A DNA stretch of 64,000 nt from Spartobacteria bacterium (GTDB taxonomy: Bacteria > Verrucomicrobiota > Verrucomicrobiia > Chthoniobacterales > UBA10450): positions 1-64,000 of the forward strand of contig PNAA01000047.1 of the NCBI GenBank assembly GCA_003169975.1. The letters run 5' to 3'. The position numbers and the translations under genes were made by a program. Under the pieces are notes generated by a model that was not told where the DNA came from, searched no databases, and saw only the letters and a list, made by a program, of their open reading frames with translations. Below are positions 428-64,000 of this stretch, in pieces. The first letter of the stretch is position 1, and each line of letters opens with the position of its first letter.

Positions 428-2422
428 CTAACCTGGCGTCTGGCGGCTGAGGAGGAGCTCGGCGATGTCGAGCACCTTGACGTTCTCGCCGCCCGGGGTG
501 CCGGCCATGCCGTCGCTCATCATGTTCAGGCAAAACGGGCAGGCCGTCGCGAGCGTTTTCGCGCCGGTCTCGATCGCTTCCTGCGCTCGCAAATTGGAAA
601 CCCGTTGCTCGGGTGGCTCGTCGAACCACATCCGGCCGCCGCCCGCACCGCAGCAGAAGGTCTTTTTCCCATGGCGCGGCATTTCGCGAAAGTGTTCGTC
701 CTTCGCCGCGCCGATCACCGCACGTGTCGCATCGATCTCACCGTTCACTCGCGCCAGGTAACACGGGTCGTGGAGGGTGATCGGCTCGCCATCGCCAGTG
801 TCGTTAGTCAGTTTTCCGGACTTAACCAATTCTGCGAGCAGCGTCGAGTGATGCTGCACTTCGTACTGACCGCCGAACTGCGGGTATTCGTTCTTCAGGG
901 TGTTGTGACAGTGCGGGCACGGAGTCACGATCTTCCTGACCTTGCGGCGGCTTAACGTTTCGACATTGGCCTGGGCGCGTTCCTGGAAAAGGAACTCGTC
1001 GCCGATGCGGCGCGCCGGGTCGCCGGTGCAGGTCTCCTCTTTGCCGAGGACGGCGAAATTCACGCCGCCTTCCTTGAGTAACTGTGCCGTCGCTCGCGCG
1101 ACCTTTTGCGCGCGAGGATCGAAGGAGGCGGCGCAACCCACCCAGAAGAGATACTCGAAGCCGGGATTCGTTTCGACCGTCGGCACGTCGAGCCCTTCCG
1201 CCCAGGCGAGACGATCGGAGTTTGGCCGGCCGTAGGGGTTAGCCTGATTGCCGACCTGTTGCAGAGCACGCGCGGGCGGCCCGGAAAGCTTGCCTTCACC
1301 GACGAGATAGCGGCGCATGTCGCTGATTAGATCGACGTGCCCGATGAGCACCGGACATTCCTGGACACAGGCCTGGCACATGGTGCAGGACCAAAGCGTC
1401 TCGGCCTGGATCGTCCCATGAACATTGACGCTGCCGTCGCCTAACGACATTAGGCCGCGCAAGTCGGTCACGACCTTCTTGGGAGAAAGTGGCTTGCCGG
1501 TGGCGGTCGCGGGACACGCGTCCTCACAGCGCCCACATTCCATGCAGGCATCGAGGCTGAGCAGTTGTTGCTGAGTGAACTGCTTAATCTCGCTCACCCC
1601 GATGAGCCCGGTTTCCTCGACCGTCTCCATCCGCAACGGCACGAGCGTGCCCATCGGCCGCTCGGGACGAAGGGCGATATTGAGGGGACCCGTGATGATG
1701 TGAAGGAACCGGTTGACCGGCAGGGTGGCGAAAAGCAGAGCGACCAGAATCGTATGCAACCACCAGGAGGCGAGGTGCATCGAGCGGGCGGTCTCCACAC
1801 CCACACCGCGCAGCAGAGTGACATCGAGTAGCCAGCCGATGATCGACCAGTGCGCCAGCCACGGTTGCACCTGGGTGTAATGAAGGCGCAGCGCTTCCAC
1901 CAGAAAGCCGGTCAGACCGAGAGCCAGGAGCAAACTCAGGAGCCACCAGTCGCCCCAGTTATGACCCAGACTCGGTTTGCGTCGGAAAGCGCGCCGATAC
2001 ATCGCGATGAGACAGCCGAGGCAGAAAGCGACCCCGAAGACGTCCATCGTCAATTCATAGATGAGATAGTACCAGCCATGGTGAAAGTAGTAGGGGCCAT
2101 CGTAGGCAATCGAGAGCAGCGTGGTGCCGATGGTGAGCACAAGAAATCCGCTGAAGAGCAGCAGGTGAAGGAGCGCGCCCAGTGTCTTTTTGTGGACGCG
2201 CTTCTGCGCCAGCCCGTATTCGAGCAGCCGCCGAATCCACACCCGCCAGTCCCGCTCAAATCCGCCGGTCTGCCCTTTCCGCCATTGGCGCAGGTGAGCG
2301 AGGAGCTGCCGCCCGAGCACGGCAAAGCTCGCCGCGATCATGATGAAAAACACCACGCGCATCCAAGGCGCGATGTTGCCGAAGACTTCGCGCGTGGTGC
2401 TGTTCACATCGAGCGCGATCAT
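428..2422 (-). CDS. Membrane Fe-S oxidoreductase, ETF:quinone oxidoreductase type (FadF/EMO-like)
   Basis: This 664-residue protein probably passes electrons from reduced electron-transfer flavoprotein to the membrane quinone pool. The N-terminal ~250 residues form several hydrophobic segments like a NarI-type cytochrome b domain. Two ferredoxin-type clusters follow (CMECGRCEDACP and CTMCQACVQECP), then two cysteine-rich CCG-type domains, the second with FCCGAGGG and CPFCLNMM. Its ATG overlaps the stop codon of the upstream toxin gene as ATGA, so translation may be coupled. The position downstream of acyl-CoA dehydrogenase and etfBA supports a role in fatty-acid oxidation. A heterodisulfide-reductase-like or GlpC-like role on another substrate is the main alternative. 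Confidence 0.85.
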   Translation of the reverse strand: MIALDVNSTTREVFGNIAPWMRVVFFIMIAASFAVLGRQLLAHLRQWRKGQTGGFERDWRVWIRRLLEYGLAQKRVHKKTLGALLHLLLFSGFLVLTIGTTLLSIAYDGPYYFHHGWYYLIYELTMDVFGVAFCLGCLIAMYRRAFRRKPSLGHNWGDWWLLSLLLALGLTGFLVEALRLHYTQVQPWLAHWSIIGWLLDVTLLRGVGVETARSMHLASWWLHTILVALLFATLPVNRFLHIITGPLNIALRPERPMGTLVPLRMETVEETGLIGVSEIKQFTQQQLLSLDACMECGRCEDACPATATGKPLSPKKVVTDLRGLMSLGDGSVNVHGTIQAETLWSCTMCQACVQECPVLIGHVDLISDMRRYLVGEGKLSGPPARALQQVGNQANPYGRPNSDRLAWAEGLDVPTVETNPGFEYLFWVGCAASFDPRAQKVARATAQLLKEGGVNFAVLGKEETCTGDPARRIGDEFLFQERAQANVETLSRRKVRKIVTPCPHCHNTLKNEYPQFGGQYEVQHHSTLLAELVKSGKLTNDTGDGEPITLHDPCYLARVNGEIDATRAVIGAAKDEHFREMPRHGKKTFCCGAGGGRMWFDEPPEQRVSNLRAQEAIETGAKTLATACPFCLNMMSDGMAGTPGGENVKVLDIAELLLSRQTPG

Positions 2423-2679
2423 CGGTAGGCGTCCTTGCGGTGGCGCACGCGTTGAATTTCGATCACGCCAGCAGCCCGGAGAAGCTCGTAGACTACGCGA
2501 TAGTCTCCCACCCGAATCCGATACGTATGATCGGAGCCCGTCAACTTCTCGGATCCGTGAGGCTGTGGCTCCGTTGCGAGGTTCGCCACCGCAGCAACAA
2601 TCCGCGAGACCTCATCACGTGGGAGGCATCGTAGATCCTTCTTCGTGGAGGCGCGCCACCGAAGTTCAAACGATGCCAT
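2419..2679 (-). CDS. RelE/ParE-family toxin
   Basis: This is an 86-residue RelE-superfamily protein. RelE members cleave mRNA in the ribosome and ParE members act on gyrase; this sequence does not settle which. The core HTYRIRVGDYRVVYEL and the closing IQRVRHRKDAYR are typical of RelE-type toxins. It overlaps the upstream antitoxin by 14 bases, as expected for a type II pair. Its TGA stop overlaps the ATG of the Fe-S oxidoreductase, so the module is wired into the middle of an energy-metabolism operon. The frame is intact and the length normal. Confidence 0.88.
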   Translation of the reverse strand: MASFELRWRASTKKDLRCLPRDEVSRIVAAVANLATEPQPHGSEKLTGSDHTYRIRVGDYRVVYELLRAAGVIEIQRVRHRKDAYR

Positions 2680-2854
2680 CGCGCTTGAGCTCGGTAACGA
2701 ACTGGTCGTGCGGGATGGTCGGCTCTTCGCGGCGCTCGGCCACGACGGCCAAGTCGTCGAGGTCCTCCAGAAGCTTCTGGTAAGCGGCGATTGGCAGCAA
2801 AACGGCAGTGCGTTCGCCTTGCTCGTCGGTGAGATACTGAACGGGATCGCTCAT
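2666..2854 (-). CDS. Antitoxin of the RelE-type pair (Phd/YefM-like or DUF2281-like)
   Basis: This 62-residue protein is encoded directly upstream of, and overlapping, the RelE-like toxin. It opens MSDPVQYLTDEQGERTAVLL, a beta-rich segment of the kind used by Phd/YefM-type antitoxins for DNA binding and dimerisation, followed by a helix LPIAAYQKLLEDLDDL. The charged C-terminal half would wrap the toxin. Such antitoxins normally repress their own promoter, which would lie in the ~100 bases between here and the etfA stop. I see no clear operator palindrome there. Family naming is tentative; the pairing itself is clear from the arrangement. Confidence 0.75.
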   Translation of the reverse strand: MSDPVQYLTDEQGERTAVLLPIAAYQKLLEDLDDLAVVAERREEPTIPHDQFVTELKRDGIV

Positions 2855-2958
2855 TGGAGGAAATTACGGCGAAATGCTGTCTATGTCGATAAGGGAGCAA
2901 GATGAGCGAGCAAAAGATCGTCTGCGACCGGCAGAGATTCCGAGGTCTGCAACCATTT

Positions 2959-3921
2959 CTAGCCTCGGCGAACCGCTTCGATCAGTTGCGGGACGAGCTG
3001 GTGCAGGTCGCCCACCAGGCCGTAGGTGGCCATCTGAAAAATCGGCGCGTCGGGATCCTTGTTGATCGCGACGATGATGCGCGAATCCTTGATTCCCGCG
3101 AGGTGCTGAATCGCGCCGGAGATACCCATCGCGATGTAGAGCTCGGGCGCGACGACCTTGCCGGTCTGTCCAACCTGATAATCGTTAGGCGCCATCCCGG
3201 CGTCAACCGCCGCGCGGGTCGCGCCGACCGCGCCGCCGAGCGCGTCCGCCAATCCGCCAACCAGGCGCTCGAACGTTTCCGGATCCTGCAACGGCCGGCC
3301 GCCGCTCACCACGACGCGGGCCTCGGTCAAATCGGGCCGGTCGGAAGCGCGTTGTTCGCGCGAGATGAATTGCATTCCGTTAGGCAAAGAGGCGGGGTCG
3401 AAGTCGAACCGTTCGATGGGACACGGGGCAGCGTCGGCCGCGGGCGCCTCGAAGGCGGTGGCCCGCGCCGTGAGCACGCAGCGGTCGCCTTCGATTTTCA
3501 CCGTGGCCAGCATGCTGCCCGCGCTTGTCGGCCGGCGGTAGGCACGCTCGCCGTTCACTTCTTCGAGCGCGAGCACGTCGGTCACCATCGGCGCATCGAG
3601 CAGCGCGGCCGCGCGCGGCAAAATATCCTTACTGAAAGTCGATGACGAGCCGATGAGAGTTTTCGCCCCATACTTTTGGGCGGCCTGCGCAATCACCGCG
3701 GCGTAACGATCCGCCAGCGGTTCCGCGAGGGCTGCGTCGTCGGCGACGATGACCGCGCTCGCGCCGCAGGAAACAAGCGACGCGGCGATCGCATCCAGTC
3801 CGTGACCGAGCACGAGCAGCGCGTACTCGCCGCCGAGTTGGCGGGCGAGCGTGATCGCGTGCAACGACGGGCGCTTCACCTGCTGGCGATCGTGTTCGAT
3901 CAGGACAAGGGTCGCGGCCAT
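2959..3921 (-). CDS. etfA: Electron transfer flavoprotein alpha subunit
   Basis: EtfA binds FAD and, with EtfB, accepts electrons from acyl-CoA dehydrogenases in the cytoplasm. The 320 residues match the family size. The N-terminal half starts MAATLVLIEHDRQ. The C-terminal FAD domain shows SGGRPLQDPETF, the QVGQTGKVVAPELYIA segment and GISGAIQH. The start at 3921 was chosen because it lies two bases after the etfB stop and matches the family N-terminus; a longer open frame upstream overlaps etfB. The order acyl-CoA dehydrogenase, etfB, etfA, then Fe-S oxidoreductase forms a complete electron path. Two exact octamer copies encode APND and LPNG here. Confidence 0.95.
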   Translation of the reverse strand: MAATLVLIEHDRQQVKRPSLHAITLARQLGGEYALLVLGHGLDAIAASLVSCGASAVIVADDAALAEPLADRYAAVIAQAAQKYGAKTLIGSSSTFSKDILPRAAALLDAPMVTDVLALEEVNGERAYRRPTSAGSMLATVKIEGDRCVLTARATAFEAPAADAAPCPIERFDFDPASLPNGMQFISREQRASDRPDLTEARVVVSGGRPLQDPETFERLVGGLADALGGAVGATRAAVDAGMAPNDYQVGQTGKVVAPELYIAMGISGAIQHLAGIKDSRIIVAINKDPDAPIFQMATYGLVGDLHQLVPQLIEAVRRG

Positions 3922-3923
3922 GC

Positions 3924-10322: not shown

Positions 10323-11176
10323 TTCTCTGGCACGATCCCCAGTGCGCGGAATACTCCGCCGCCGGGCATCCGGAACGTCCGGCGCGGGTGTTACGGAGCG
10401 CGGCCCACTTGCAGCAGGCGCATCCGGATTGGGACTGGCGTTTGCCTAACGAAGCTTCGGAAGCAGTCCTGCTCCGCGCGCACGGTGCTGCACACGTCGA
10501 GCGGGTGCGCACGGCGAGCCACGATTTCGATGCCGACACCCCGGCCTACGAAAATATTTTCGCGCATGCGGCGCGCGCTGCCGGTGCGGCCTGCGCCGTT
10601 GCGCAAGCGTCGTTAGGCGGGACACCCGCCTTCAGCCTGATGCGCCCGCCGGGACATCACGCCACCCGCAACCAGGCAATGGGCTTCTGTTTTTTTAATC
10701 ACATCGCCGTGGCCGCGCTCGACGCGCTGGCGCACGGCGCGGAGCGGGTTGCGATCTGGGATTTCGACGCGCACCACGGCAACGGCACCGAAGCGATCGT
10801 GACCGGAAACCCGCGGATCGCCTTCGCCTCAGTCCATCAATTTCCCGGCTATCCCGGGACCGGCTCCCGTTCGTTAGGCAACGTCCACAACTTCCCGGTC
10901 GCCCCTTTTGCGCCGCGGGCCGGGCATCGCGACGCGCTCGCGCGCGCCCTCGCGGTGCTCCTGGAATTCAAGCCCGATCTGTTGCTCGTCTCGGCCGGCT
11001 TTGATGCTTTCGCCGGCGACCCGATCACCCAGATGAGTTTGGAGATTGATGATTTCGCGCTCTTCGGAAAATGGCTCCGTGAAAGTTCCGTCCCGGCCGG
11101 CGCGATTCTCGAAGGCGGCTACAGCGACGATCTCCCGCAGCTGATTGATGCGTTCCTGAGCAACTGGGCGGCTTGA
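10319..11176 (+). CDS. Histone-deacetylase-family amidohydrolase
   Basis: A 285-residue member of the zinc-dependent HDAC/AcuC/acetylpolyamine amidohydrolase superfamily. It shows the active-site histidine pair in RPPGHHA, the metal ligands in WDFDAHHGNG and SAGFDAFAGDP, and the glycine-rich EGGY. Length fits the bacterial class. The substrate could be acetyl-lysine or an acetylated small amine; the sequence does not decide. It starts with GTG overlapping the DoxX stop. Three exact octamers lie in or at the end of this gene (10444 LPNE, 10611 SLGG, 10872 SLGN), a high density for 860 bases. Confidence 0.9.
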   Translation: MILWHDPQCAEYSAAGHPERPARVLRSAAHLQQAHPDWDWRLPNEASEAVLLRAHGAAHVERVRTASHDFDADTPAYENIFAHAARAAGAACAVAQASLGGTPAFSLMRPPGHHATRNQAMGFCFFNHIAVAALDALAHGAERVAIWDFDAHHGNGTEAIVTGNPRIAFASVHQFPGYPGTGSRSLGNVHNFPVAPFAPRAGHRDALARALAVLLEFKPDLLLVSAGFDAFAGDPITQMSLEIDDFALFGKWLRESSVPAGAILEGGYSDDLPQLIDAFLSNWAA

Positions 11177-11182
11177 AGATCG

Positions 11183-12524
11183 TTAGGCCCGAGTCTTCTT
11201 GAAGAGAACCAGCGCACCGGCGATGCCGGAGCCGACACTTGCCGCGAGAATCCCGACCTTCGCGGTTTCAAGTTCGGACGCGGCGCCGAAGGCAAGGTTC
11301 GCGATGAATAACGACATCGTGAAGCCAATTCCACCCAGCACTCCGACTCCGATGATCTGACGCCAGCAGACGCCCTCCGGAAGGATGGCGAGACGGCCGC
11401 GGACGGCGAACCACGAAAAGAGAACGATGCCGATCGGTTTTCCGAGTGCGAGACCGGTGATCACCCCGAGGCTGATCGGACTAACGAGTGCTCCGAACGC
11501 CTCTCCGCCAAAGGCCACGCCTGCATTGGCGAGGGCAAAAATCGGCATGATGGCGTGTTTGATCCAGGGCGCGAGCGCGTGCTCGAAACGCAGCATGGGC
11601 GCTTCCGCATAATGGCAATCCTGCGCGAGCAAGCTCAAGGCCGCGCTCCGGGTGGCGCCGGCCTCGATCACGTTCTCCGCCTCGTTCGCACCACGAAATT
11701 CGTCGAGAATCTTCTGACTCCGCTCGAGGAAAGCGCCGCCATCGAGGCGGCGGCGCGAAGGGATGGTCAGGGCGAGCAGCACCCCGGCCACCATGGCGTG
11801 AATCCCGGACTGCAAAAACGCCAGCCACAAGCCGAAACCGAGGATGGCGTAGATCAGCGGATGCCGCGCGCCCGATGCGATTCATCACGAGCAGCGCGAC
11901 GAAGAACGCCCCGGCCACCGCGAGGCTGATCCAGGAAATTTCCGCGGTATAAAAAAAGGCAATCACCAGGACGGCGCCGATGTCGTCGGCGATAGCGAGC
12001 GCAGCGAGGAAAACCTTGAGCGAAGTGGGCACTCGGTCGCTGAGGAGCGCGAGCACGCCGAGCGCGAAGGCGATATCGGTCGCCATCGGCACGCCCAGCC
12101 GGCCGCTCCCGGGCCGGTCCGATTAAAAAGAAAATAGAAACCGGCTGGAACAAGCATCCCACCGAGGGCGGCGACCAGCGGGAGCGCGGCTTTGCGCAAG
12201 GAAGCTAGTTCGCCAATCAGCGCCTCCCGTTTGATCTCGAGACCGACGAGGAGAAAGAAGATCGCCATCAACCCGTCGTTGATCCAAAAGTGCAGTTCTT
12301 TGGAGAGTTGATGGCCGGCGAAGCCGAGAGTCAGCTTCGTTGTGCCAAAGGCTGAAGTAGGTCGCCGCCCACGGCGAATTTGCCCAGAGAAGCGCGGCCA
12401 CGGTGCAGCCGATGAGGAGAATGCCGCCGGAAGCCTCCAGCTTGGCGAATTCCTCGAATGGTTTGGCCAGCCGTTCGATCGGCGTTTCACCGGGCAGGAG
12501 CAATCTCTTTTGGCTCTTCTTCAT
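11183..12524 (-). pseudogene. nhaA: Na+/H+ antiporter NhaA, interrupted by three frameshifts
   Basis: Joined across frames this is a full-length NhaA, which exchanges sodium for protons at the inner membrane. Recognisable parts in order: start [20 protein letters not shown] at 12524, [87 protein letters not shown] and GGIGFTMSLFIANLAFG. Reading frame changes occur near 12350, near 12110 and near 11865. The paired aspartates (ADD) remain. The TAA stop lies inside an exact octamer copy (11181-11188). Three shifts in 1.3 kb suggest real decay, but locally poor sequence is possible. Confidence 0.88.
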
Positions 12525-17068: not shown

Positions 17069-18192
<1,124 letters not shown>

Positions 18193-18299: not shown

Positions 18300-18995
18300 G
18301 GAATACAAAATCCGGCCGCACTGCTCGCAGCTCACAATTTCTTGGCCGCCTTTCACACGGACAACGGTTTGAGTCGTGATTTTCATGTGGCAGCCGGTGC
18401 AAACATCGTGCTCGAGCGCGACGACCGCCGCGTCGCCTTTGCTCGCGAAAAGCCGGTTGAAGCGGTCGAGCAAATCTTCGTCCACCCCGGCGGCGAGTTC
18501 TGCTCGCTCCTTCTTCAATTCTTCGAGGCGGTTGCCTAACGTTGCCTCTTTCGCCTCCAGGTCGGCGATTTGTCTGGCGATCGAATCCTTCGCAGTCGTG
18601 GTTTGTTTTTCCTCGGCCGCGATCTGCGCTTTGAGCACATCGGCCTGCTCCATCAACTCGAGTTCCTGATCCTCGAGCGCGCTAATTTCCTTTTGATAAC
18701 GCTCGATCTCGCGGCCCATCGCGGAGAATTCATCGTTCTTGCGCGTCTCGTATTGCTGCGTCTTCAAGCGCGCGATGCTCTCCTCGCGGGTGCCGACATC
18801 GAGTTCCAGTTTCTTCTTTTCCATCTCGACGTGACGCGCTCGATCCTTGGTCGCGACGAGGTTCGCCGAGGCTGCCGCGACCTGCGCATCGAGCGATTTC
18901 CGCTCGAGCGGCAAACTCTTCAATTCCGCTTCGACTTGCCGAATTTTCTGGGCACGATCCTGCAAAATGAGGAGCTGCTCCAACTCGACTTGCAC
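18291..18995 (-). CDS. Coiled-coil protein with C-terminal C4 zinc ribbon (CdsZ/COG1579-like)
   Basis: A 234-residue protein that is almost all coiled coil up to residue ~185 (many E/K/L/A heptads, for example KEISALEDQELELMEQADVL), followed by a zinc ribbon CTGCHMK...CEQCGRILY with four cysteines. This layout is that of COG1579/CdsZ. In Chlamydia CdsZ relates to type III secretion, but in free-living bacteria the role is unproven. The start is a GTG at 18995. The last residues (SGS) and the stop come from the inverted-repeat element. Confidence 0.85.
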   Translation of the reverse strand: MQVELEQLLILQDRAQKIRQVEAELKSLPLERKSLDAQVAAASANLVATKDRARHVEMEKKKLELDVGTREESIARLKTQQYETRKNDEFSAMGREIERYQKEISALEDQELELMEQADVLKAQIAAEEKQTTTAKDSIARQIADLEAKEATLGNRLEELKKERAELAAGVDEDLLDRFNRLFASKGDAAVVALEHDVCTGCHMKITTQTVVRVKGGQEIVSCEQCGRILYSGS

Positions 18996-19026: not shown

Positions 19027-20286
19027 TCAATCGTCGGCCGGCACGCGCCCGAGGATGATGCAGGCGTTGATCCCGCCGAACCCGAACGAGTTGCTCAGCA
19101 CGTGGTCGATGGAGGCGGCCCGCCCGTGCTGCGGAACGACATCGAGGTCGCAGGCCGGGTCGGGATTTTCCCGGCTCAACGTCGGCGGAATCCAGCCGCG
19201 ATCGATCGCGAGCGCGCAAAGCGCGGCCTCGATCGCGCCGGTCGCGCCTAACGGATGACCCGTGTAGGCTTTCGTGCCGCTGACCGGAAGGCGCGCGGCG
19301 TGCGGGCCGAAGACCTCCTTGATCGCCATCGTCTCGGTGCTGTCGTTCAACTGGGTGGAGCTGGCGTGGGCGTTGATGTAATCGATCTGCTCCGGGGCGA
19401 GGCGCGCGTCGGCTAGCGTTTCGCGCATCGCGCGAATGCACGATTCACCGCTCGGCAACGGCGACGTCATGTGAAACGCGTCATTGTTCAGACTGTAGCC
19501 GAGCACCTCCGCGTAAATGCGCGCGCCCCGCGCACGGGCGTGCTCCAGTTCCTCGATGACTAACGACGCCGCGCCCTCGCCCATCACGAAACCGTCGCGC
19601 AACTTGTCGAACGGCCGGCAGGCCTGCGCGGGGTCACCGGTGAATTGGCTCATCGTCTTGATGAACGCGAAGGCGCCGAAAGTGAGCTGGCTGAGGGGCG
19701 ATTCCGCCCCGCCCGCCACGATGACGTCGGCAAAATCGTCCCGAATGTAGCGGAGCGCTTCGCCGACCGCGATCGTGCCGCTGGCGCAACTGTTCGAATT
19801 CGTCGTTCCCGCGCCGCGGAAGCCGAACTCGATCGCGATATTAGTGTGCGCGGAGCCGCCGAAGACCTGGAGCGCAAGGGTCTGATTCACCCCGCGGCTG
19901 CCCTTTTTCAAAAAATGCGCGTGCTCCGATTCGGCGTTTGCGATGCCGCCAAGCGCGGTGCCGAAACTCACTCCGATGCGAGCTTGCGGATTTTCGCGCG
20001 ACCATTCGATCCCCGCGTCGTCGAGCGCGAGCTTGGCCGAGCCGACCGCAAACTGCGCATAACGATCCAGCCGCTTCAAGCGATGGGGCGGGAAAAATTC
20101 CTCCGGCGCCCAATCCGGAATTTCCGCGGCACAATGCGCGTTGAAGATCGAGCTGTCGAAACTTTGCACCCGGCGGATGCCGCTTTTCTCCGCGCGCAGC
20201 CCGTTCCAAAAACCGTCGCGCCCGATGCCGACCGAGGTGATGGGACCGAGGCCGGTGATGACCGCACGTCGTTTGGGTTCGCCCAT
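19027..20286 (-). CDS. Beta-ketoacyl-ACP synthase II-like (FabF family)
   Basis: A 419-residue ketosynthase that would condense malonyl-ACP with an acyl chain. The active-site triad is present: C167 in NSCASG, H307 in INAHASS and H344 in YTGHPLGATG. Its motif NSNSCASG differs from the usual DTACASG of housekeeping FabF. With an SRPBCC/cyclase-like gene 16 bases upstream, this may be a secondary ketosynthase for a specialised lipid or aromatic product rather than the main fab enzyme. No acyl-carrier protein gene is in view. An octamer copy encodes PLG in the conserved HPLGATG loop. Confidence 0.88.
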   Translation of the reverse strand: MGEPKRRAVITGLGPITSVGIGRDGFWNGLRAEKSGIRRVQSFDSSIFNAHCAAEIPDWAPEEFFPPHRLKRLDRYAQFAVGSAKLALDDAGIEWSRENPQARIGVSFGTALGGIANAESEHAHFLKKGSRGVNQTLALQVFGGSAHTNIAIEFGFRGAGTTNSNSCASGTIAVGEALRYIRDDFADVIVAGGAESPLSQLTFGAFAFIKTMSQFTGDPAQACRPFDKLRDGFVMGEGAASLVIEELEHARARGARIYAEVLGYSLNNDAFHMTSPLPSGESCIRAMRETLADARLAPEQIDYINAHASSTQLNDSTETMAIKEVFGPHAARLPVSGTKAYTGHPLGATGAIEAALCALAIDRGWIPPTLSRENPDPACDLDVVPQHGRAASIDHVLSNSFGFGGINACIILGRVPADD

Positions 20287-20302
20287 ATTCTCAGGAGGGT
20301 CG

Positions 20303-20770
20303 TTAGGCGAGATGCGGCTCCGACGGTGTCGCCGCCTGCTTCTCGAGATGCGCTTTCATCGCGCAGAGGGTTTGGTTCGCCACGTGATGGATGAAAAAGC
20401 CGCCGATGATCGGCTCCGCGAGCGGCGCCAGCACAGGGACCCGGAAGCGCAACGCATGCGTGATCTCGACCAGCACCCCGGCGGGCGTTTCCTTAAACGT
20501 CCAGACCACGCGCATACCGCGGGTGAACGCTTTCAGGTGAAGAAAGCGGAGTTCCATCCGTTCACGATCGACCACGAACTCCGACGTCCAGGAAATCGGA
20601 ATGCCCGAGCGCAGCGCCGCCATCTCCACGATGCTGCGGTCGGGGCGGCGGTCGAGGAAGCGAATGAAGCGGTAATGCGGCAGGATTCGCGGCCACTGTT
20701 CGAGATCGGCGGCGGTCTCAAAAATGGCTTCGCGCGGCGCGTGCATGATGATGGAGTTGCCGGTCTGCAT
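20303..20770 (-). CDS. SRPBCC (polyketide cyclase / START-like) protein
   Basis: A 155-residue protein of the helix-grip fold: MQTGNSIIMHAPREAIFETAADLEQWPRILPHYRFI is a typical opening, followed by alternating strands and a long C-terminal helix. Such proteins bind hydrophobic ligands or act as aromatases/cyclases beside ketosynthases. It is translated just ahead of the FabF-like gene (16-base gap), suggesting a functional pair. Its TAA stop lies within an exact octamer copy (20301-20308). Substrate unknown. Confidence 0.85.
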   Translation of the reverse strand: MQTGNSIIMHAPREAIFETAADLEQWPRILPHYRFIRFLDRRPDRSIVEMAALRSGIPISWTSEFVVDRERMELRFLHLKAFTRGMRVVWTFKETPAGVLVEITHALRFRVPVLAPLAEPIIGGFFIHHVANQTLCAMKAHLEKQAATPSEPHLA

Positions 20771-29684: not shown

Positions 29685-29699
29685 GCGTTTGCCTAACGA

Positions 29700-41558: not shown

Positions 41559-41585
41559 GACGCCCCTCTCGCGTTGGGAAATTGG

Positions 41586-46333: not shown

Positions 46334-47167
46334 CTACAGGTATCGCTCGCGCACCTCGTTAGGCGTGACTCCGGCAGCCCGCAACGTGCGCAGACTGAGG
46401 GCGTCGTGACGTTTCGCGAGGCGTTGGCCTAACGAATCGGTCACGAGCGGCAGGTGACAGAAATCCGGGGCGGACAAATCGAGCGCGCGATAAAGGAGCA
46501 ACTGCCGGAAGGCGGACCGGAGAAGGTCGGCGCCGCGCACTACCTCGGTGATCCGCATGGCGCCGTCATCGACCACCACGGCAAGCTGGTAGGCGGGGAC
46601 ATCGTCCTTCCGCCAGATGACGAAATCACCGAAGTCCGTCCCGGCGACGGCGCGCTGCCGACCCGCGCACTGGTCGAAAAATTGGAGGGCTTCGCCCGCC
46701 GGGACACGGAAACGCCAGTTCATCCCGGCCGGATCCTCTGCCGGAGGAATCGTTAGGCGAGCAGGCCGGCAGGTACCCGGATAGTGCGGCTCTTCATCCT
46801 CGGCATGCGGCGCGCCGGCCGCACTCAGCACGTCGCGGCGCGAGCAACTGCAAGGATAGACCAGACCACGGTCGCGCAATTTTTTCCATGCCTCGAGGTA
46901 GAGCGGGCGGCGTTCGCTTTGCAGAACGGGCCCTTCCGTCCAGTCCAAACCAAACCAGCGCAGGTCCTCGAAAATCGCCTCCCGGAATTCCGGCCGGCAG
47001 CGAGCTCGATCGAGATCTTCCACGCGCAGAACGAGCGTGCCGTGGCGTTCGCGGCAGCGTTCCTGCGCACGCCAAAAGGTCAGCGCGTGGCCGGCATGCA
47101 GATAACCGGTGGGTGAGGGAGCGAGCCGGCCGCGATAGCCCTTGTCATGTTGAGCGGAGCGAAACAT
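46334..47167 (-). CDS. gluQRS: Glutamyl-Q tRNA(Asp) synthetase
   Basis: Glutamylates queuosine in tRNA-Asp. The 277 residues lack the anticodon-binding part of GluRS, as expected. HIGH-type motif: LAPSPTGYLHAGHA; KMSKS-like: QRLAKRHDALSL; zinc-ligand region YPCSCSRRDVL...EPHYPGTCR. The first eight residues (MFRSAQHDK) come from a common intergenic sequence type, but no better start exists. Three exact octamers lie here (46357 TPNE, 46427 SLG, 46751 RLT), two of them 70 bases apart and in opposite orientation. Confidence 0.94.
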   Translation of the reverse strand: MFRSAQHDKGYRGRLAPSPTGYLHAGHALTFWRAQERCRERHGTLVLRVEDLDRARCRPEFREAIFEDLRWFGLDWTEGPVLQSERRPLYLEAWKKLRDRGLVYPCSCSRRDVLSAAGAPHAEDEEPHYPGTCRPARLTIPPAEDPAGMNWRFRVPAGEALQFFDQCAGRQRAVAGTDFGDFVIWRKDDVPAYQLAVVVDDGAMRITEVVRGADLLRSAFRQLLLYRALDLSAPDFCHLPLVTDSLGQRLAKRHDALSLRTLRAAGVTPNEVRERYL

Positions 47168-48047: not shown

Positions 48048-48365
48048 ATGCCTGTAAGCCAGCCTAACGTTCTTCCCCTCAAAGGCGAAATCGACCTTCA
48101 TGTGTCGCCGCAGGTCAGCGCGTCGCTGGCCGCGCTGATCGCGAAGAAGCCGCCGCAATTGGTGGTCGATCTTTCCGAGGTCAGCTACATCGACAGCTCC
48201 GGTCTCGCGGTGCTGATCGAGGCGATGCAAAATGTCGTCGGCTACGGTGGCAAATTCGCCCTCAGCGGCTTGCAAGAGGGCGTCCGGCCGATTTTCGAAA
48301 TCGCGCGGCTCGATCAGGTCTTCCGAATTTTCCCCGATTCCGCATCGGCGTTGCGGGCCAGCTGA
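48048..48365 (+). CDS. STAS-domain anti-sigma factor antagonist
   Basis: A 105-residue single STAS domain (SpoIIAA/RsbV type). The phosphorylatable Ser lies in VSYIDSSGLAVLIEAMQ; the opening is LKGEIDLHVSPQVSASL. Such proteins bind an anti-sigma kinase when unphosphorylated and so free a sigma factor. No partner kinase or phosphatase is adjacent. The last 52 bases overlap the 3' end of the convergent glycosyltransferase gene. An octamer encodes P-N in SQPNVL close to the start. Confidence 0.9.
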   Translation: MPVSQPNVLPLKGEIDLHVSPQVSASLAALIAKKPPQLVVDLSEVSYIDSSGLAVLIEAMQNVVGYGGKFALSGLQEGVRPIFEIARLDQVFRIFPDSASALRAS

Positions 48366-49453
48366 AGGACGGCAAGCGTGCGCTCGACGTTAACCGAGAT
48401 ATCAAAGTGACCGGCGCGCTCGAGAATCGCTGAGCGCGCGGCGTGCCGGCGCTCGGGATCCGACCAGAAAAGGAGGGCAGCGCGAATTTCCGCCGTATCC
48501 GGGGCGCGCTCGACGATCGACCCATGGACACCATGCTCGATGATCTCGCTGAAGCCGTTGGCGCGCGTGGTGACAACGGGCAAACCGGCGGCGAGCGCCT
48601 CGAGGCAGGCGTTCGAAAACGGATCGTAGAGGGTCGGCAAAAGGAAGATGTCGGCGGCCGAGTAGAGGGCGGGCAGATCGCGCACGGCCCCGAGCCATTG
48701 GACGGAACTCCCGCTCGCCAGCCGCCGGCGGCCGCGCCCGGCGATGAGGAGGCGGTAGTCTTTGCCTAACGATTTGACGGAGTCGAGCGCGAAGCGCAGG
48801 CCTTTGCGCTCCCAACCGGAGCCGACAAAAAGGAGCGCGATCTCGTCATCCCGCAGGCGCAGAATTTTGCGTCGCCGCAGGCGCGCCTCGGGATCGGGCC
48901 GGAACTCCATCAGAGGGACACCGTTTGGCACGACATCGATCTGGCCGGCCGGATAGCCGTAGAATTCCTCCGCCTCACGCTTCACCATCTGGGAGTTGGC
49001 GATGACGCGGCGGGCGCCGCCGGTGAAGAGCGCCTTCTCGAGTTCGAGGGTTTCGCGGTGCTTGGCGTTAAGACGACTGAGCAATCTGCGGGCGAATGAG
49101 GAAACGGCAGCGCGCCGTCGCATCCAAGCCTGGTGAATGCCGTCGCCCGCGCGGTAAACATCGCAGCGCCAGACCCGCTCGAGACTGAGCAGGAGGTCGC
49201 AATGATCCTCCGGTCCGATCTTCTCCAGTTCATCGGCGAAGCGCTGCGCGCTCTCACCCCGGAGCCGCGTCATCGGCCCCCAGGGCCATTCGCGCGCTGG
49301 CCAGGCCGCATCGGTAAAGAGCCGGGTGGTGTGACCGGACTCGCTGAGTCCGCGGGCGAGGCGCTTCAAGTAGGCCTCGGCGCCGCCCGTCACGGAATGA
49401 CCGCGCCGCACCAGGCCGATCGTTAGGCGGGGAGCGCTTATGGCCGGCAACAC
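48314..49453 (-). CDS. Family 4 glycosyltransferase (WaaG-like)
   Basis: A 379-residue GT-B enzyme with opening LTIGLVRRGHSVTGGAEAYLKRLARGL, donor-site segment LLFVGSGWERKGL and signature SNACLEALAAGLPVVTTRANGFSEII. It resembles LPS-core glucosyltransferases such as WaaG. It runs divergently from the envelope operon (51 bases between start codons), so the two probably share a regulatory region. Its 3' end overlaps the STAS gene on the opposite strand. Two exact octamers lie here (SLG and RLT). Confidence 0.9.
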   Translation of the reverse strand: MLPAISAPRLTIGLVRRGHSVTGGAEAYLKRLARGLSESGHTTRLFTDAAWPAREWPWGPMTRLRGESAQRFADELEKIGPEDHCDLLLSLERVWRCDVYRAGDGIHQAWMRRRAAVSSFARRLLSRLNAKHRETLELEKALFTGGARRVIANSQMVKREAEEFYGYPAGQIDVVPNGVPLMEFRPDPEARLRRRKILRLRDDEIALLFVGSGWERKGLRFALDSVKSLGKDYRLLIAGRGRRRLASGSSVQWLGAVRDLPALYSAADIFLLPTLYDPFSNACLEALAAGLPVVTTRANGFSEIIEHGVHGSIVERAPDTAEIRAALLFWSDPERRHAARSAILERAGHFDISVNVERTLAVLQLARNADAESGKIRKT

Positions 49454-55128: not shown

Positions 55129-57300
55129 ACTCAAAAGTTTGCGCAGCTCCTCCCGCGTCGTGACCGGCGCCTTGCAGGTGAAGTTTTCGCAAACGTAAGC
55201 CGCCGCCTTGTCGTCGACCGGTTTCATCTCCTTCATTTCCTCCAGTTTCCCCGCGAGGAATTTCTGGCCTTCGCCGCCATCGGCCAGGAGCACGATCGTG
55301 TCCGGCAGGTAATGCCGGTGCACTTCCTCGATCAGCTCGCGCGTCTCGGGCGCCCCGGCTTGCCCGGCGATGATAATCTGTTTTGGTTTCGTTAGGCTGA
55401 AATCGAGCGCGACTAGCAGCTGCGGCATGGCGCTTGGAAAATGATCGAGGCTCGCGCCAAAGGCGGCGATCGTTTTCTCCCCGCGAGCGCGCAGTTCATT
55501 GGAATCGCGGATCTGCGCGAGCCGCAGCAAATTCAACGCCGCAATCGAACTCGGGGCCGGCTCCGCGTTGTCGTTGTCTTCCTTCAGCCGGAGCAGGATG
55601 CTCGGATCGTCGCCCGTGCTGCCAAAGTAGCCCCCCTTCTTGTCGTCCCAGAAGAGCCGATCCTGGGTCGCCTGCAATTGCTCTGCCAGCTGAAGCCACT
55701 GCACGTCGAACGAGGCTTCGTAGAGGTCGAGCAGGCCTTGGATGTAAAAAGCGTAGTCTTCCGCGAAACCGCCGATACCGGACGGGCCGCCGCGATAGCT
55801 GCGCACCAGGGTCTGCGCCTTTTCGTCGTAAAGTTTTGACCTCACGAAATCGGCGGCGCGGGTGGCGGCCTCGAGATAGGCCGTGTCGCCCAGGACCTGC
55901 GCCGCGCGCGCAAAAGCGGAAATCATCAGCCCGTTCCAGGCAGTGATGATCTTGTCGTCGAGATGTGGTCGCGGCCGTTTTGCACGCTCTTCCAGCAGGG
56001 TCGCGCGGCGGTAGCGCATCGACTCGTCGACGTCCATCTCACTTTTTCCAAAATGCTTGGCCGTCTCGACGAAGGTCTGCCGCTCATAGAGGATGTTTTT
56101 GCCCTTGAATTCTCCCTGTGGGTCGCTCCCCTCGGGCGCGTTGCCGTCCGCCTCCACGCCGTATTGGTAATCGAAGAGCTCGCCATACTCGCCCAGCGCC
56201 TCATCGATCTCCTGCTTCGTCCAGACGTAGAACGCGCCCTCCGCCTTCTCGCTGCCGCCCGCGGTCGTTAGGCTATCAGCATCCTCGGCCGAATAAAATC
56301 CGCCGCCCGGATCGGTCATGTCGCGCCGCACATAGTCGAGCGTGTCGCGCGCGATTCCCTCGTAACGCAGATCGCCCGTGATCTGGTAGGCGTCGAGATA
56401 GGAACTGGCCAGTTGCGCCTGGTCGTAGAGCATTTTCTCGAAGTGCGGGACGCGCCACGCCGCGTCGACCGAGTAGCGATGGAACCCGCCGCCGAGTTGG
56501 TCGTGAATTCCACCGGCAGCCATTTTGCGCAGGGTGAACAATCCCATCCCGAGCGCCGCCTCGCCCGCCTCCGAGCCCGGGGCAGAGCGATGATAAACGT
56601 GGAAAAGAAAATTGAGCGTGACCGGTCGCGGGAATTTCGGAGCGCCGCCGAATCCGCCCTCCCGCGCATCGTAACCGCGGGCAATTTGTTGATAGGCCGC
56701 CTCGATGACTTTCGCGTTTGCTTTCCCCGGCTTTTCCGCCGACGTGTTCGCGGAGTGGGCCAGCGCGGCGATGATTTGGTCGCCGCTCTGGCTGATCTTG
56801 GCGCGATCGCCTTCCCATGCATCCGCGATGCGGTGGAGCACCTTCATAAAACCTGGCTGTCCGTAACGATCTTCCGGCGGAAAATAAGTGCCGCCGACAA
56901 ACGGTTTCAGCCCCGGGGTCAACCAGACATTGAGCGGCCAGCCGCCGCCGCCGGTCGTCGCCTGGACAAAAGTCATGTAAACGCGATCGACATCCGGGCG
57001 TTCTTCGCGGTCGACCTTGATGTTGACGAAGTGCGCGTTCATCACCGCGGCGACTTCTTCGTTCTCAAACGATTCTCGCTCCATCACGTGGCACCAGTGG
57101 CAGGTGGAGTAACCGATCGAGAGAAAAATCGGCTTCTTCTCGCGGCGCGCCTTGGCGAAGGCCTCCTCGCCCCACGGATACCAATCGACCGGATTGTGCG
57201 CGTGCTGGAGCAGGTAAGGTGATTTCTCGCGCGCGAGCCGGTTGGTGTGCTCGACATGCGCCGGCGGCGCGTCGGCAACGGCGGGCGGAGTCGGTGTCAC
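55123..57300 (-). CDS. Thioredoxin-domain protein, YyaL/DUF255 (SSP411-like)
   Basis: A 725-residue protein. The N-terminal DUF255 thioredoxin-like domain has [27 protein letters not shown] and the active-site-like [15 protein letters not shown]. The rest is an (alpha/alpha)6-barrel like N-acyl-glucosamine epimerases ([29 protein letters not shown]). Family members have no firmly proven reaction. The start is GTG at 57300. Two exact octamers encode S-L-T. Its stop codon is part of the hairpin formed by two octamer variants. Confidence 0.93.
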
Positions 57301-57422
57301 ATCCTATCCTACCGAAAAAGCGCCGGCACGCGAAAGCGCAGGATCGGACGGACCCGGAGGACGGAGCTTGCCTAACGAAATGGAACCGGCAGGCGACGGA
57401 AGAATGTGCTTCAGTTGCTCCT

Positions 57423-61664: not shown

Positions 61665-62666
61665 ATGGAGGATCGCTTCGGCCATCGCATCTCGTATTTG
61701 CGCGTCTCTATCACCGACCGCTGCAACGAGCGCTGCACCTACTGCATGCCGCAGGAGTTGCAGGAATGGCTCCCGCGCCATGACATCCTCACCTTCGAAG
61801 AAACCATCCGTCTCATCCGGATCGCGGGCGAGCTGGGCGTGACGAAAATCCGTCTCACCGGTGGTGAGCCCCTCACGCGGCGCGATGTCATCCAGCTCTT
61901 CCGCCAGCTCCCGCGCCTAACGAACCTGCGCGACATCGGCCTTTCGACCAATGGCACCCTCCTCACCCGCGAGGTGGAGCCCGGCCTGACGATGGCGGCG
62001 GCGGTCCGCGCCTGCGGCTTCAATTCCGTCAATATCTCGCTCGATACGCTCGACCGCGAAGAGTATGCCCGCGTCACGGGACGCGATCTGCTGCCCGACG
62101 CACTCGCGGGGATCGACGCGGCCATCGCCGCCGGATTTCCGCAGGTGAAGATCAACTGCGTGTTGATGCGCGGCCATAACCAGGAAGCGCTCGTGCCGCT
62201 GGTCGATTTTGCGGCGGAACGGAATCTTCTTCTCCGTTTCATCGAACTCATGCCGGTGAGCACGACCGAGGTCCTGGCCGAGAGCAACTTCTTCCCCGTG
62301 GCCGAGGCGAAACGCACGATCGAAGCGAAATTTGGCTCCTTGCTTCCGCAGCCGGAATTCCGGACCAACGGCCCGGCCAGCTACTATCAAATCCCTGGGC
62401 GCGCCCAGCGCATCGGGTTTATCGGCGCGATGACCAACCTGCATTTCTGCGAGAGCTGCAACAAACTGCGCCTCACCTGCGACGGGAAACTGCGACCCTG
62501 TCTCGGCAGTTACCTCGAGTTCGACATTATGAAGCCGCTGCGCGCCGGCGCGAGCGACGAAGAGCTCCGGCAATTCTTTCTCGATGTCGTCGAACGCAAA
62601 CCGGAGCAGCATGATTTCCGCACGACCTACCAACCGGGGCGCAAGATGGTGGCGATCGGTGGCTAA
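61665..62666 (+). CDS. moaA: GTP 3',8-cyclase, molybdenum cofactor biosynthesis
   Basis: A radical-SAM enzyme that converts GTP to 3',8-cyclo-GTP, the first step of molybdopterin synthesis. The 333 residues show DRCNERCTYCMPQE (first Fe-S cluster), LTGGEPLTRRDV, and the C-terminal second cluster HFCESCNKLRLTCDGKLRPCL. The usual C-terminal Gly-Gly is present (IGG before the stop). It is followed three bases later by moaC. The stop TAA lies within an octamer-like GGCTAACG. An exact octamer encodes L-T in RLTNLRDIG. Confidence 0.97.
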   Translation: MEDRFGHRISYLRVSITDRCNERCTYCMPQELQEWLPRHDILTFEETIRLIRIAGELGVTKIRLTGGEPLTRRDVIQLFRQLPRLTNLRDIGLSTNGTLLTREVEPGLTMAAAVRACGFNSVNISLDTLDREEYARVTGRDLLPDALAGIDAAIAAGFPQVKINCVLMRGHNQEALVPLVDFAAERNLLLRFIELMPVSTTEVLAESNFFPVAEAKRTIEAKFGSLLPQPEFRTNGPASYYQIPGRAQRIGFIGAMTNLHFCESCNKLRLTCDGKLRPCLGSYLEFDIMKPLRAGASDEELRQFFLDVVERKPEQHDFRTTYQPGRKMVAIGG

Positions 62667-63140: not shown

Positions 63141-63213
63141 CTGGATGGGAGAGGAAACTGCATTCCCTTCTTCTCATTTCAATCCTCATAATCCTGTAAA
63201 TCCTGTCAAAAAA
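63118..63213. repeat. Dispersed inverted repeat (aggatta family) between moaC and mog
   Basis: gacaagatttgcaggatta (63120-63138) and taatcctgtaaatcctgtc (63189-63207) are near-perfect reverse complements (17 of 19). The left arm supplies the last codons of moaC. The right arm is followed by seven A residues on +, so it would terminate only minus-strand transcription. Confidence 0.8.
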
Positions 63214-63696
63214 ATGCAGATCACCGTTGGCATCATTACCGTTTCCGATCGCGCCAGCCGCGCCGAATACGACGATCTCGGCGGTCCCGCCTTGAAAGAG
63301 GTCGCTCTCAAGAACAACTGGAGCGTCCTCTGCGAAGCGATCGTCCCCGATGAAATCGACCGCCTGCAGGAAGCGATCCGCTCCTTCGCCGACCAGGGTT
63401 GCGGCCTCATCCTGACAACGGGCGGCACCGGTCTGGCCGCGCGCGATATCACGCCGGAAGCGATCCGCGGCCTGATGCGCGTCGAGCTTCCCGGTTTCGG
63501 CGAGGTGATGCGCGCCGAGTCGATGAAGATCACGCCGAACGCGATCCTTTCGCGCAACCTGGGCGCGGTCGTCGCGCAATCTTTAGTCATCGCCTTGCCC
63601 GGCAAACCGAGCGGCGCGGTCGAGTGTCTCGGCTTCGTCGCGGGGGCAATCCCGCACGGCGTGGCGCTCGCCCAACGCCTGCCGACATCCTGTTAA
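63214..63696 (+). CDS. Molybdopterin adenylyltransferase-like protein (Mog/MoaB)
   Basis: A 160-residue MoCF-fold protein that adenylates molybdopterin, or a MoaB paralogue. Motifs: GIITVSDRASRAEYDDLGG, LILTTGGTGLAARDITPEA and ALPGKPSGAVECLGF. ATG 63214 starts directly at the first strand; the longer frame back to 63085 overlaps moaC and was rejected. It completes a moaA-moaC-mog operon. MoaD, MoaE and MoeA are not in the window. Confidence 0.92.
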   Translation: MQITVGIITVSDRASRAEYDDLGGPALKEVALKNNWSVLCEAIVPDEIDRLQEAIRSFADQGCGLILTTGGTGLAARDITPEAIRGLMRVELPGFGEVMRAESMKITPNAILSRNLGAVVAQSLVIALPGKPSGAVECLGFVAGAIPHGVALAQRLPTSC

Positions 63697-63764
63697 GCAC
63701 AAAGCCGGTTTCTTTTCTTGAATCCAAACCCAGTCGTCGTCGCATCTCAATGGAGATCCCAATC

Positions 63765-64000
63765 ATGAAAAACAAGAATCTTATCGCTGCGTTGTCCCTT
63801 CTCGGCCTTCTCTCCACTGGTTGCGATTGGCGGGGTATCCGCGGTAACGGCCAGATCAAGACTGAGACCCGGCCAGTCACCGCGTTTACCCGGGTGAATG
63901 CGGGTGGTTTCTACGAGCTGGAATGGCGTCCGGGCGCCCCCTCTTTTAGCCTAACGACGGACGAAAATCTGCTTTCGCACATCACGACCAGCGTGGAGGG
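63765..64000 (+). CDS. DUF2807-type lipoprotein, 5' part
   Basis: The gene runs off the right edge after ~78 codons. It begins MKNKNLIAALSLLGLLSTGC, a lipoprotein signal with lipobox, preceded by ggag ten bases upstream of the ATG at 63765. The mature part (RGNGQIKTETRPVTAFTRVNAGGFYELEW) is the typical opening of DUF2807/GIN-domain putative adhesins. An exact octamer encodes S-L-T in FSLTTDE near the window end. Confidence 0.78.
   Translation, partial: MKNKNLIAALSLLGLLSTGCDWRGIRGNGQIKTETRPVTAFTRVNAGGFYELEWRPGAPSFSLTTDENLLSHITTSVE

What the first reader, a model, noticed from the sequence alone, without database searches (positions are those of the whole stretch)
1439..63956. A dispersed octamer, GCCTAACG/CGTTAGGC, about 15-fold over-represented and embedded in genes
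Seen: 37 exact copies by hand count (positions in the feature entry) against 2-3 expected from base composition, plus over a dozen one-base variants. Orientation is balanced (19 versus 18). Thirty-three or so lie inside genes, always in one of four stop-free readings: Pro-Asn, Leu-Gly, Leu-Thr or Val-Arg. They sit in conserved places, such as the G1 loop of YchF and the HPLGATG loop of the ketosynthase, and use codons (TTA, CCT AAC) that GC-rich genes otherwise tend to avoid. An extended form TTGCCTAACGA recurs. Known parallels: DNA uptake sequences of Neisseria and Pasteurellaceae, and HIP1 of cyanobacteria. Strand balance argues against Chi or KOPS-type signals. Inference: a self-DNA recognition, methylation or nucleoid-protein site. 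I know of no report of this motif.
Basis: partly seen in the sequence, partly recalled or inferred. Interest (0 to 1): 0.92.

Follow-up and report, generated by a model that had tools for sequence, protein, structure and literature searches.

The report
Uptake-signal-like DNA word in Verrucomicrobiota
A nine-letter DNA word, GCCTAACGA, is written about two thousand times across this Verrucomicrobiota genome, and it behaves like the self-recognition tags that two families of distantly related bacteria use to choose which DNA to take up, though the uptake itself has not been tested.

Summary
In detail: 37 exact GCCTAACG in the window, 19/18 by strand, 1.0 expected. It is genome-wide: 2349 copies, 332 of the reversed word. 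The over-represented word is GCCTAACGA; the proposed TT extension is weak. Codon use does not explain it: 313 copies in called genes, 13.9 after synonymous shuffling. It marks one Verrucomicrobiota family: GCCTAACGA occurs 19-4605 times in 83 of 83 genomes, 0-29 times in 282 of 285 elsewhere in the phylum. Recognition looks sharp: strict CTAAC, tolerant edges. Sites are conserved beyond their surroundings (17 of 24 shared; 20% for control words), avoid close pairs and show little polarity. ComEC, DprA and PilT are present in all seven motif-rich genomes, but also in nearly all motif-poor ones. Best explanation: a DNA uptake (self-recognition) sequence; uptake is inferred. Chi, attC and HIP1 fit worse. 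Two surprises: a sister clade is rich in an unrelated word, AAGATCGACA, and one genome in both; a Mu-like phage contig binned with this genome carries the word at 1.2/kb while its nearest relative found has one site in 15.6 kb.

The parts
1439..1446 (+). GCCTAACG site
3183..3190 (-). GCCTAACG site
3378..3385 (-). GCCTAACG site
10444..10451 (+). GCCTAACG site in a Hist_deacetyl-family gene
10611..10618 (-). GCCTAACG site in a Hist_deacetyl-family gene
10872..10879 (-). GCCTAACG site in a Hist_deacetyl-family gene
11181..11188 (-). GCCTAACG site; its TAA ends the ORF 11183-11830 (-), Na+/H+ antiporter family
17095..17102 (+). GCCTAACG site in the G1 loop (LPNVGKS) of ychF
18087..18094 (-). GCCTAACG site in the 3' part of ychF
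18534..18541 (+). GCCTAACG site
19246..19253 (+). GCCTAACG site in the HPLGATG stretch of ORF 19027-20286 (-)
20301..20308 (-). GCCTAACG site
27519..27526 (+). GCCTAACG site
29691..29698 (+). GCCTAACG site; its TAA ends the ORF 28920-29696 (+), no Pfam match
30554..30561 (+). GCCTAACG site in an MFS-family gene
32866..32873 (+). GCCTAACG site
35322..35329 (+). GCCTAACG site
38407..38414 (-). GCCTAACG site
39539..39546 (-). GCCTAACG site in pheT (39201-41660, -)
40005..40012 (+). GCCTAACG site in pheT
40718..40725 (-). GCCTAACG site in pheT
40934..40941 (-). GCCTAACG site in pheT
41510..41517 (-). GCCTAACG site in the pheT ORF
43897..43904 (+). GCCTAACG site in a CHASE2/guanylate cyclase gene
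44694..44701 (-). GCCTAACG site in a CHASE2/guanylate cyclase gene
45249..45256 (+). GCCTAACG site in a CHASE2/guanylate cyclase gene
46357..46364 (-). GCCTAACG site
46427..46434 (+). GCCTAACG site
46751..46758 (-). GCCTAACG site
48062..48069 (+). GCCTAACG site
48764..48771 (+). GCCTAACG site
49421..49428 (-). GCCTAACG site
55390..55397 (-). GCCTAACG site
56266..56273 (-). GCCTAACG site
57370..57377 (+). GCCTAACG site
61915..61922 (+). GCCTAACG site
63949..63956 (+). GCCTAACG site

Best explanation
GCCTAACGA is a DNA uptake sequence: a self-recognition word bound on incoming double-stranded DNA by the type IV pilus uptake machinery of a naturally transformable Verrucomicrobiota family. DNA that carries the word is preferentially imported and recombined, so the word accumulates wherever protein sequence tolerates it and is kept there (molecular drive plus conservation), densest in DNA shared with relatives. 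Shown: over-representation, family restriction, strict core with tolerant edges, near strand balance, conservation, avoidance of close pairs, patchy density, presence of three uptake-related genes. Inferred: binding by a pilin, biased uptake, drive, and that the near-empty stretches are recent arrivals.
For: Non-palindromic word, 2349 octamers in 4.47 Mb, 1 per 2.0 kb in G000 and about 1 per 0.83 kb in G003 (5157 in 4.3 Mb), comparable with the USS spacing of about 1 kb in H. influenzae (PMC7811141, passages). Single changes in CTAAC are at 0 to 3.2 times expectation while many edge changes are enriched (G1 to C 19x, C2 to A 16x, G8 to A 8.5x, A9 to G 12x), reminiscent of the strict CTG core of the neisserial DUS (PMC3630211, passages). 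Near strand balance: 160 sense, 152 antisense in G000. Conservation: 17 of 24 sites of G000 shared with congeners at about 76% DNA identity against 317 of 1571 same-letter words, p 1e-7; 12 of 40 shared with G014 at 71% against 364 of 3347, p 8e-4; neisserial DUS are likewise conserved and core-enriched (PMC2397512, passages). Alignable DNA is richer in sites: 24 in 25.6 kb against 12.9 expected from the mean, p 0.0035; 40 in 59.5 kb against 29.9, p 0.044; on the G014 side 55 against 47, p 0.14. Close pairs avoided: under 100 bp 5 against 29.8 in G014, 10 against 17.2 in G000. Patchy in G000: variance 13.6 at mean 5.0 over 69 windows of 10 kb. ComEC (PF03772), DprA and PilT present in G000-G005 and G014.
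Against: No uptake experiment, receptor or recorded competence. The competence genes are near universal in the order (53, 54 and 56 of 58 genomes) and do not track motif density; with the stricter ComEC/Rec2 model TIGR00361, 0 of 58 genomes pass the curated cut-off (all match weakly). A Mu-like phage contig binned in G000 carries the word more densely (24 in 20 kb) than the host mean, not expected of foreign DNA under a simple uptake tag. Motif density correlates with local GC (0.72). In G014 there is a sense bias (206 to 150, p 0.0035), in contig C5 of G000 a marginal strand bias (109 to 81, p 0.0499), and no bias to gene ends as reported for Pasteurellaceae. In the synonymous shuffle the reversed control word was also above its mean, though little (53 against 37.0, sd 6.4). 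In motif-poor members of the family the count does not exceed the reversed word (G341 19 against 56, G016 60 against 79). That the near-empty stretches are recent arrivals was not tested.
Confidence: 0.6

Rival explanations
1. HIP1-like genomic word: a site for a solitary methyltransferase or another intracellular DNA-marking or repair-guiding protein, kept up by biased repair or selection on chromosome maintenance, with no role in uptake.
For: HIP1 also reaches such densities, with one-off variants that spare central positions (PMC4390886, passages). Would explain the motif in a resident phage without transformation. Other Verrucomicrobiota loci do carry a dense palindrome (L046, L047, L050).
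Against: The word is not a palindrome; HIP1 is one and goes with palindrome-specific methyltransferases. No methyltransferase was sought here. Very uneven along the chromosome.
Confidence: 0.22
2. Chi-like site: an orientation-dependent signal that turns a RecBCD- or AddAB-type nuclease from degradation to recombination, protecting self DNA and the phage.
For: Would favour acquisition by a linear phage genome; in the phage stretch most sites inside genes run with the gene (12 of 14 in 17 genes picked by hand). In G000:C5, where GC skew is positive in 18 of 19 windows, 109 sites are on + and 81 on - (p 0.0499).
Against: RecC (PF04257) is not found in G000 or G014, both motif-rich and 97-98% complete, yet is found in motif-poor G007, G025 and G031; it is found in motif-rich G001-G005. 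No polarity in 360 kb of G014: 143 to 148. AddAB was not tested.
Confidence: 0.08
3. Dispersed integron attC-like recombination sites: GCCTAAC fits the attC box RYYYAAC (recalled).
For: G038, in another family, has clustered one-orientation copies spaced about 0.4-1 kb, like a cassette array.
Against: attC needs two inverted boxes; neighbouring pairs under 150 bp show no inverted excess (G000 ++4 +-4 -+5 --3; G014 ++6 +-1 -+6 --7) and close pairs are rare. Sites lie inside conserved genes such as ychF and pheT. No integrase was sought.
Confidence: 0.02
4. By-product of composition, dicodon bias or a mutational habit of the lineage.
For: Density correlates with GC; the reversed control word is also somewhat above its shuffle mean (53 against 37.0).
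Against: Synonymous shuffles within genes give 13.9 against 313 (G000) and 13.3 against 356 (G014); the order-3 Markov expectation for GCCTAACGA is 4.9 against 290; same-letter words are far less conserved.
Confidence: 0.03

Closest known systems
Neisseria DNA uptake sequence (DUS) and its dialects
   Same: Short non-palindromic word in very many copies, strict inner core, conserved and core-enriched, family-wide with lineage variation (PMC3630211 and PMC2397512, passages read).
   Different: Unrelated sequence, different phylum, no uptake assay; the second word of the family is not a dialect of the first; no excess of inverted close pairs; present in a Mu-like phage contig.
Pasteurellaceae uptake signal sequence (USS)
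   Same: Short core about once per kb, lower in strain-specific DNA (0.58 against 1.08 per kb; PMC7811141, passages).
   Different: No flanking signal beyond weak pyrimidines at -4 to -1; no bias to gene ends; unrelated sequence.
Cyanobacterial HIP1
   Same: Density, one-off variants with strict centre (PMC4390886, passages).
   Different: HIP1 is a palindrome linked to methyltransferases; GCCTAACGA is not a palindrome.
Chi sites
   Same: Short non-palindromic over-represented word.
   Different: Little polarity; RecC not found in two motif-rich genomes.

Membership tests
DNA uptake sequence (DUS/USS) | Short word dispersed in hundreds to thousands of copies far above chance | tested here: met
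DNA uptake sequence (DUS/USS) | No strong strand or replication polarity | tested here: met
   160/152 sense/antisense in G000, 206/150 in G014; 143/148 in G014:C2, 109/81 in G000:C5
DNA uptake sequence (DUS/USS) | Conserved at orthologous places and enriched in shared DNA | tested here: met
   one of the three enrichment tests not significant (p 0.14)
DNA uptake sequence (DUS/USS) | Strict core with tolerant edges | tested here: met
DNA uptake sequence (DUS/USS) | Competence and type IV pilus genes present | tested here: met
   PF03772, DprA, PilT in all seven motif-rich genomes; TIGR00361 matches stay under its cut-off in 58 of 58; PilQ and ComEA not tested
DNA uptake sequence (DUS/USS) | Scarce in foreign or mobile DNA | tested here: inconclusive
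   near-empty stretches exist but their foreign origin was not tested; G004 phage-like stretch 0 in 4.5 kb; the G000 phage contig is dense
DNA uptake sequence (DUS/USS) | The word raises uptake in transformation assays | not testable with these tools
   no experiment possible
DNA uptake sequence (DUS/USS) | Specific receptor pilin | not tested
   no pilin was examined
HIP1 | Palindromic word | tested here: not met
   GCCTAACGA read directly; variant spectrum not symmetric
HIP1 | Cognate solitary methyltransferase | not tested
   no search and no modification data
Chi | Orientation bias towards one replication strand | tested here: inconclusive
   none in G014:C2 (143/148), marginal in G000:C5 (109/81, p 0.0499); replication arms only inferred from GC skew
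Chi | Chi-reading nuclease present | tested here: inconclusive
   RecC not found in G000 and G014, found in G001-G005; AddAB not tested
Integron attC | Paired inverted boxes close together | tested here: not met

The most novel reading that the evidence does not exclude
A third, independent evolution of DNA self-recognition words, in Verrucomicrobiota, with two unrelated words: GCCTAACGA, present across the family and amplified in g1, g2 and g11, and AAGATCGACA in a sister clade. One genome (G014) is bilingual, about 1800 copies of the first and 4900 of the second, so it could take up DNA from both circles. A Mu-like phage has learned the host word since it split from a nearly word-free relative, giving its DNA a second way into cells, through competence.
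Probability: 0.25. Interest if true: 0.93.

Novelty: new variant of a known kind. Interest (0 to 1): 0.82.

Why it matters
Sequence preference in DNA uptake is described for two families, Pasteurellaceae and Neisseriaceae (PMC7811141, introduction passage, 2020), so how such systems arise is argued from two cases. A family of environmental bacteria with graded densities (19 to 4605 copies in 83 genomes), an unrelated second word, a genome rich in both and a phage that has acquired the word would make origin, spread and exploitation of DNA self-recognition comparable across close relatives. It would also imply that natural transformation is routine in a lineage for which three searches of the library returned no paper on it.

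Tried and rejected
Rejected: codon bias by synonymous shuffling and low-order Markov composition. Rejected: attC or hairpin pairs. Rejected: a strand-polar reading suggested by the capped first listing of G000:C5 (every place shown was +); reading the contig gave 109 + and 81 -, so the listing was an artefact. Disfavoured: RecBCD-Chi. The TT extension is weak. De novo word search in fetched stretches of 14 genomes: GCCTAACG or a shifted form was the top 8-mer in 6 of 6 g1 and g2 genomes, and in G024 with only 5 copies in 29 kb; in G014 the second word came first and this one next; G008, G016 and G017 showed the second word; G022 another repeat; G007 and G011 nothing clear. Gapped-pair scans of viral contigs for motif-dense phages gave 18, 1 and 9 stretches with at most 4 sites each and mixed GC, taken as chance; their sensitivity is low and they missed the known dense phage. 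Not tested: AddAB, PilQ, ComEA, integron integrase, methyltransferases, receptor pilins, foreign origin of the motif-poor stretches.

Limits of method. Genes were called by a greedy longest-ORF script, which is wrong in places: in the window it prefers an ORF without Pfam match to pheT and pheS; gene, frame and sense counts carry that error. In the alignments overlapping pieces and pieces over 99.5% identical were dropped; G002 aligned over 265 bp with no site and was left out. The YchF tree has 30 of the 44 genomes searched (those with a locus), is rooted at its midpoint and rests on one protein; G002 and G005 are not in it. Density expectations use means of the stretches fetched, 16% of G000 and about 17% of G014.

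Searches for earlier reports (open-licence PubMed Central only): searches returned no paper. Others were listed only in part: (bare octamer) 20 of 183, none relevant by title or abstract start; 25 of 53, the one listed with a Verrucomicrobia term being on HipA kinases; 15 of 214,871; 10 of 3,931; 1 of 1, on extracellular DNA. Papers: PMC7811141, PMC2397512, PMC4390886, PMC3630211 passages; PMC2346458 abstract and Findings section; PMC1939737 abstract and section list; the rest from listings. Recalled, from no call: the attC box consensus.

Full report
Observation. The window holds 37 exact copies of GCCTAACG, 19 on + and 18 on -, against 1.01 expected. It is G000:C51:1-64000, part of a 4.47 Mb, 59-contig assembly that is 97% complete; the genome holds 1203 + 1146 copies, and the same letters read backwards 171 + 161. 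In 716 kb examined the over-represented word is GCCTAACGA (290 copies against 4.9 by an order-3 Markov model); the ninth base is A in 81% and G in 13% of 360 sites, and nothing further away stands out except a weak T/C preference at -4 to -1. 312 of 360 sites lie wholly inside called genes, which cover 90% of the DNA; 16 overlap a gene's end and 32 are outside (the gene call is automatic and partly wrong). Shuffling synonymous codons within each gene leaves 13.9 copies (sd 3.5) where 313 are seen; the reversed control word gives 53 against 37.0 (sd 6.4) in the same test, so the null is a little low, but nowhere near enough. In YchF the loop [11 protein letters not shown] is identical in 30 of 30 genomes, yet only G000, G003 and G004 spell it with GCCTAACG.

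Who has it. By YchF the nearest named records are mostly Verrucomicrobiota, among them records labelled Chthoniobacter and Candidatus Udaeobacter (some MAG labels look wrong, which is my inference). In the family of the window 83 of 83 genomes have GCCTAACGA, from 19 to 4605 copies: genus g1 1410-4605, g2 2147, g11 1802, g7 94-587, g3 177-481, g8 277, g10 194, g12 204, g14 111-222, g9 133, g6 82-134, g5 42-469, g4 19-95, g13 60. In the poorest of these the word does not exceed its reversed control (for example G341 19 against 56). Of 285 genomes of the phylum outside the family, 282 have 0-29 copies and three of one genus (g63) have 61-133; there the reversed word is usually the commoner. The word is thus a family trait of very unequal density. 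A YchF tree of 30 genomes makes the family one clade (support 97/97) and puts G014 in the clade of g4, g5, g6, g13 and g14 (99/94), away from g1; the 12 sites shared by G000 and G014 suggest inheritance rather than separate gain (inference).

How it is recognised. Single-base variants are not spread evenly. Changes in CTAAC are at 0 to 3.2 times expectation, while many edge changes are enriched: first G to C 19x and to A 6.5x, second C to A 16x, eighth G to A 8.5x (20x in G014), ninth A to G 12x; others are not (first G to T 2.2x, ninth A to C 0.4x). Even decay of a dead repeat would not give this; a protein with a sharp asymmetric core would (inference).

How it is laid out. Orientation is even with respect to called genes in G000 (160/152) and uneven in G014 (206/150, p 0.0035). 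Along 379 kb of G000 it is 109/81 (p 0.0499) and along 360 kb of G014 143/148. Close pairs are avoided (under 100 bp: 10 against 17.2 in G000, 5 against 29.8 in G014). Counts per 10 kb in G000 are overdispersed (mean 5.0, variance 13.6, 69 windows) and correlate with GC (0.72); they drop to nearly none over stretches such as C5:40-80 kb and C2:20-80 kb. Of 9 proteins examined in the first, the Pfam matches include a fatty-acid transporter, a ResIII domain, a metallophosphatase and an endosialidase chaperone, and 3 have no match; of 10 in the second, phosphodiesterases, a glycosyltransferase, AMP-binding enzymes and a decarboxylase, and 1 has no match. Whether these stretches are recent arrivals was not tested. 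In G014 the word is spread more evenly (mean 7.9, variance 9.8, 50 windows).

How it evolves. Aligned to G001, G003 and G004 at about 76% identity, 17 of 24 sites of G000 are shared, against 317 of 1571 words with the same letters (p 1e-7); against G014 at 71% identity, 12 of 40 against 364 of 3347 (p 8e-4). Alignable DNA is richer in sites than the mean in two of three tests (24 against 12.9, p 0.0035; 40 against 29.9, p 0.044; 55 against 47.1, p 0.14). These resemble what is described for neisserial DUS: conserved, core-enriched, absent from recently acquired genes, spaced about 1-1.5 kb (PMC2397512, passages).

Machinery. ComEC (PF03772) is found in 53, DprA in 54 and PilT in 56 of 58 relatives, and all three in the seven motif-rich genomes G000-G005 and G014. 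With the model TIGR00361 all 58 match but none passes its curated cut-off. These genes fit the model but do not discriminate, since motif-poor relatives have them too. RecC is found in 20 of 58, including motif-rich G001-G005 and motif-poor G007, G025 and G031, but not in motif-rich G000 and G014, so RecBCD-Chi is an unlikely account.

The phage. The densest stretch fetched, G000:C4:1-20000 (24 sites), carries a terminase, a probable head protein, a Mu-type transposase and a transposition ATPase and matches a viral contig, UViG_3300037261_000237. Its nearest relative found, by transposase (73% identity over residues 1-669; 72% DNA identity in the best aligned piece), has 1 site in 15.6 kb; four more distant ones by transposase and one by terminase have none. 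In 17 phage genes picked by hand from the ORF list, 14 sites are seen against 0.65 after synonymous shuffling. The simplest reading is that the phage gained the word after it came to live in this host lineage; that the contig belongs to this host rests on binning and on the word itself. A second phage-like stretch, in G004, has none in 4.5 kb. Foreign DNA with the host word is not what a simple uptake tag predicts: either the prophage shares in the host's transformable gene pool, or the word helps the phage directly, or the word arises by an intracellular process that any long-term resident undergoes. This is the main reason for not going above 0.6.

A second word. G014 also carries AAGATCGACA at 175 per 100 kb, against 86 for GCCTAACG; AGATCGACA occurs 4941 times in its genome, 249-1672 times in the genomes of g5, g6, g9, g12, g13 and g14 searched, 33-139 times in the other genera of the family and 4-81 times in the 21 genomes of other families. 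In G014, 52 head-to-tail pairs of it lie exactly 15 or 16 bp apart. It is not a spelling variant of the first word.

Judgement. PMC4390886 (introduction passage) names three classes of such over-represented words: Chi, uptake words and HIP1. The uptake word fits best on the features I could test except scarcity in phage DNA. I put 0.6 on it, 0.22 on an intracellular marking or DNA-binding site, 0.08 on a Chi-like signal.

Noticed in passing
G014, e.g. L134-L138 and L184-L203: A second unrelated over-represented word, AAGATCGACA (A or T next), 4941 copies of AGATCGACA in G014 and hundreds or more in six sister genera; 52 head-to-tail pairs exactly 15-16 bp apart.
   Followed up: partly
L046, L047, L050 (Verrucomicrobia MAG contigs); L034: Dense HIP1-like palindrome around TTGGCCAA: CTTGGCCAA 48 in 21.7 kb, 39 in 15 kb and 14 in 10 kb; GTTGGCCAA 16 in 11.7 kb of L034.
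   Followed up: no
G000:C4 (L103), L212, L285, L291: Mu-like phage contig carrying the host word at about 1.2 per kb while its nearest relative found, L286, has 1 in 15.6 kb; by position several copies coincide with the end of a phage ORF and would supply its TAA.
   Followed up: partly
G038 C7:94047-97613, C13:25-1452, C21:53993-56302: Clusters of GCCTAACG in one orientation, spaced about 0.4-1 kb, looking like an integron cassette array in another family of the order.
   Followed up: no
G022, L144-L148: A longer recurring word, about GGATCGTACAGTTCC, 12-18 times in 100 kb; possibly a dispersed repeat element.
   Followed up: no
G239, G242, G251 (genus g63, another family of the class): Mild excess of GCCTAACGA (61-133 copies in about 6 Mb) outside the family of the window.
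   Followed up: no
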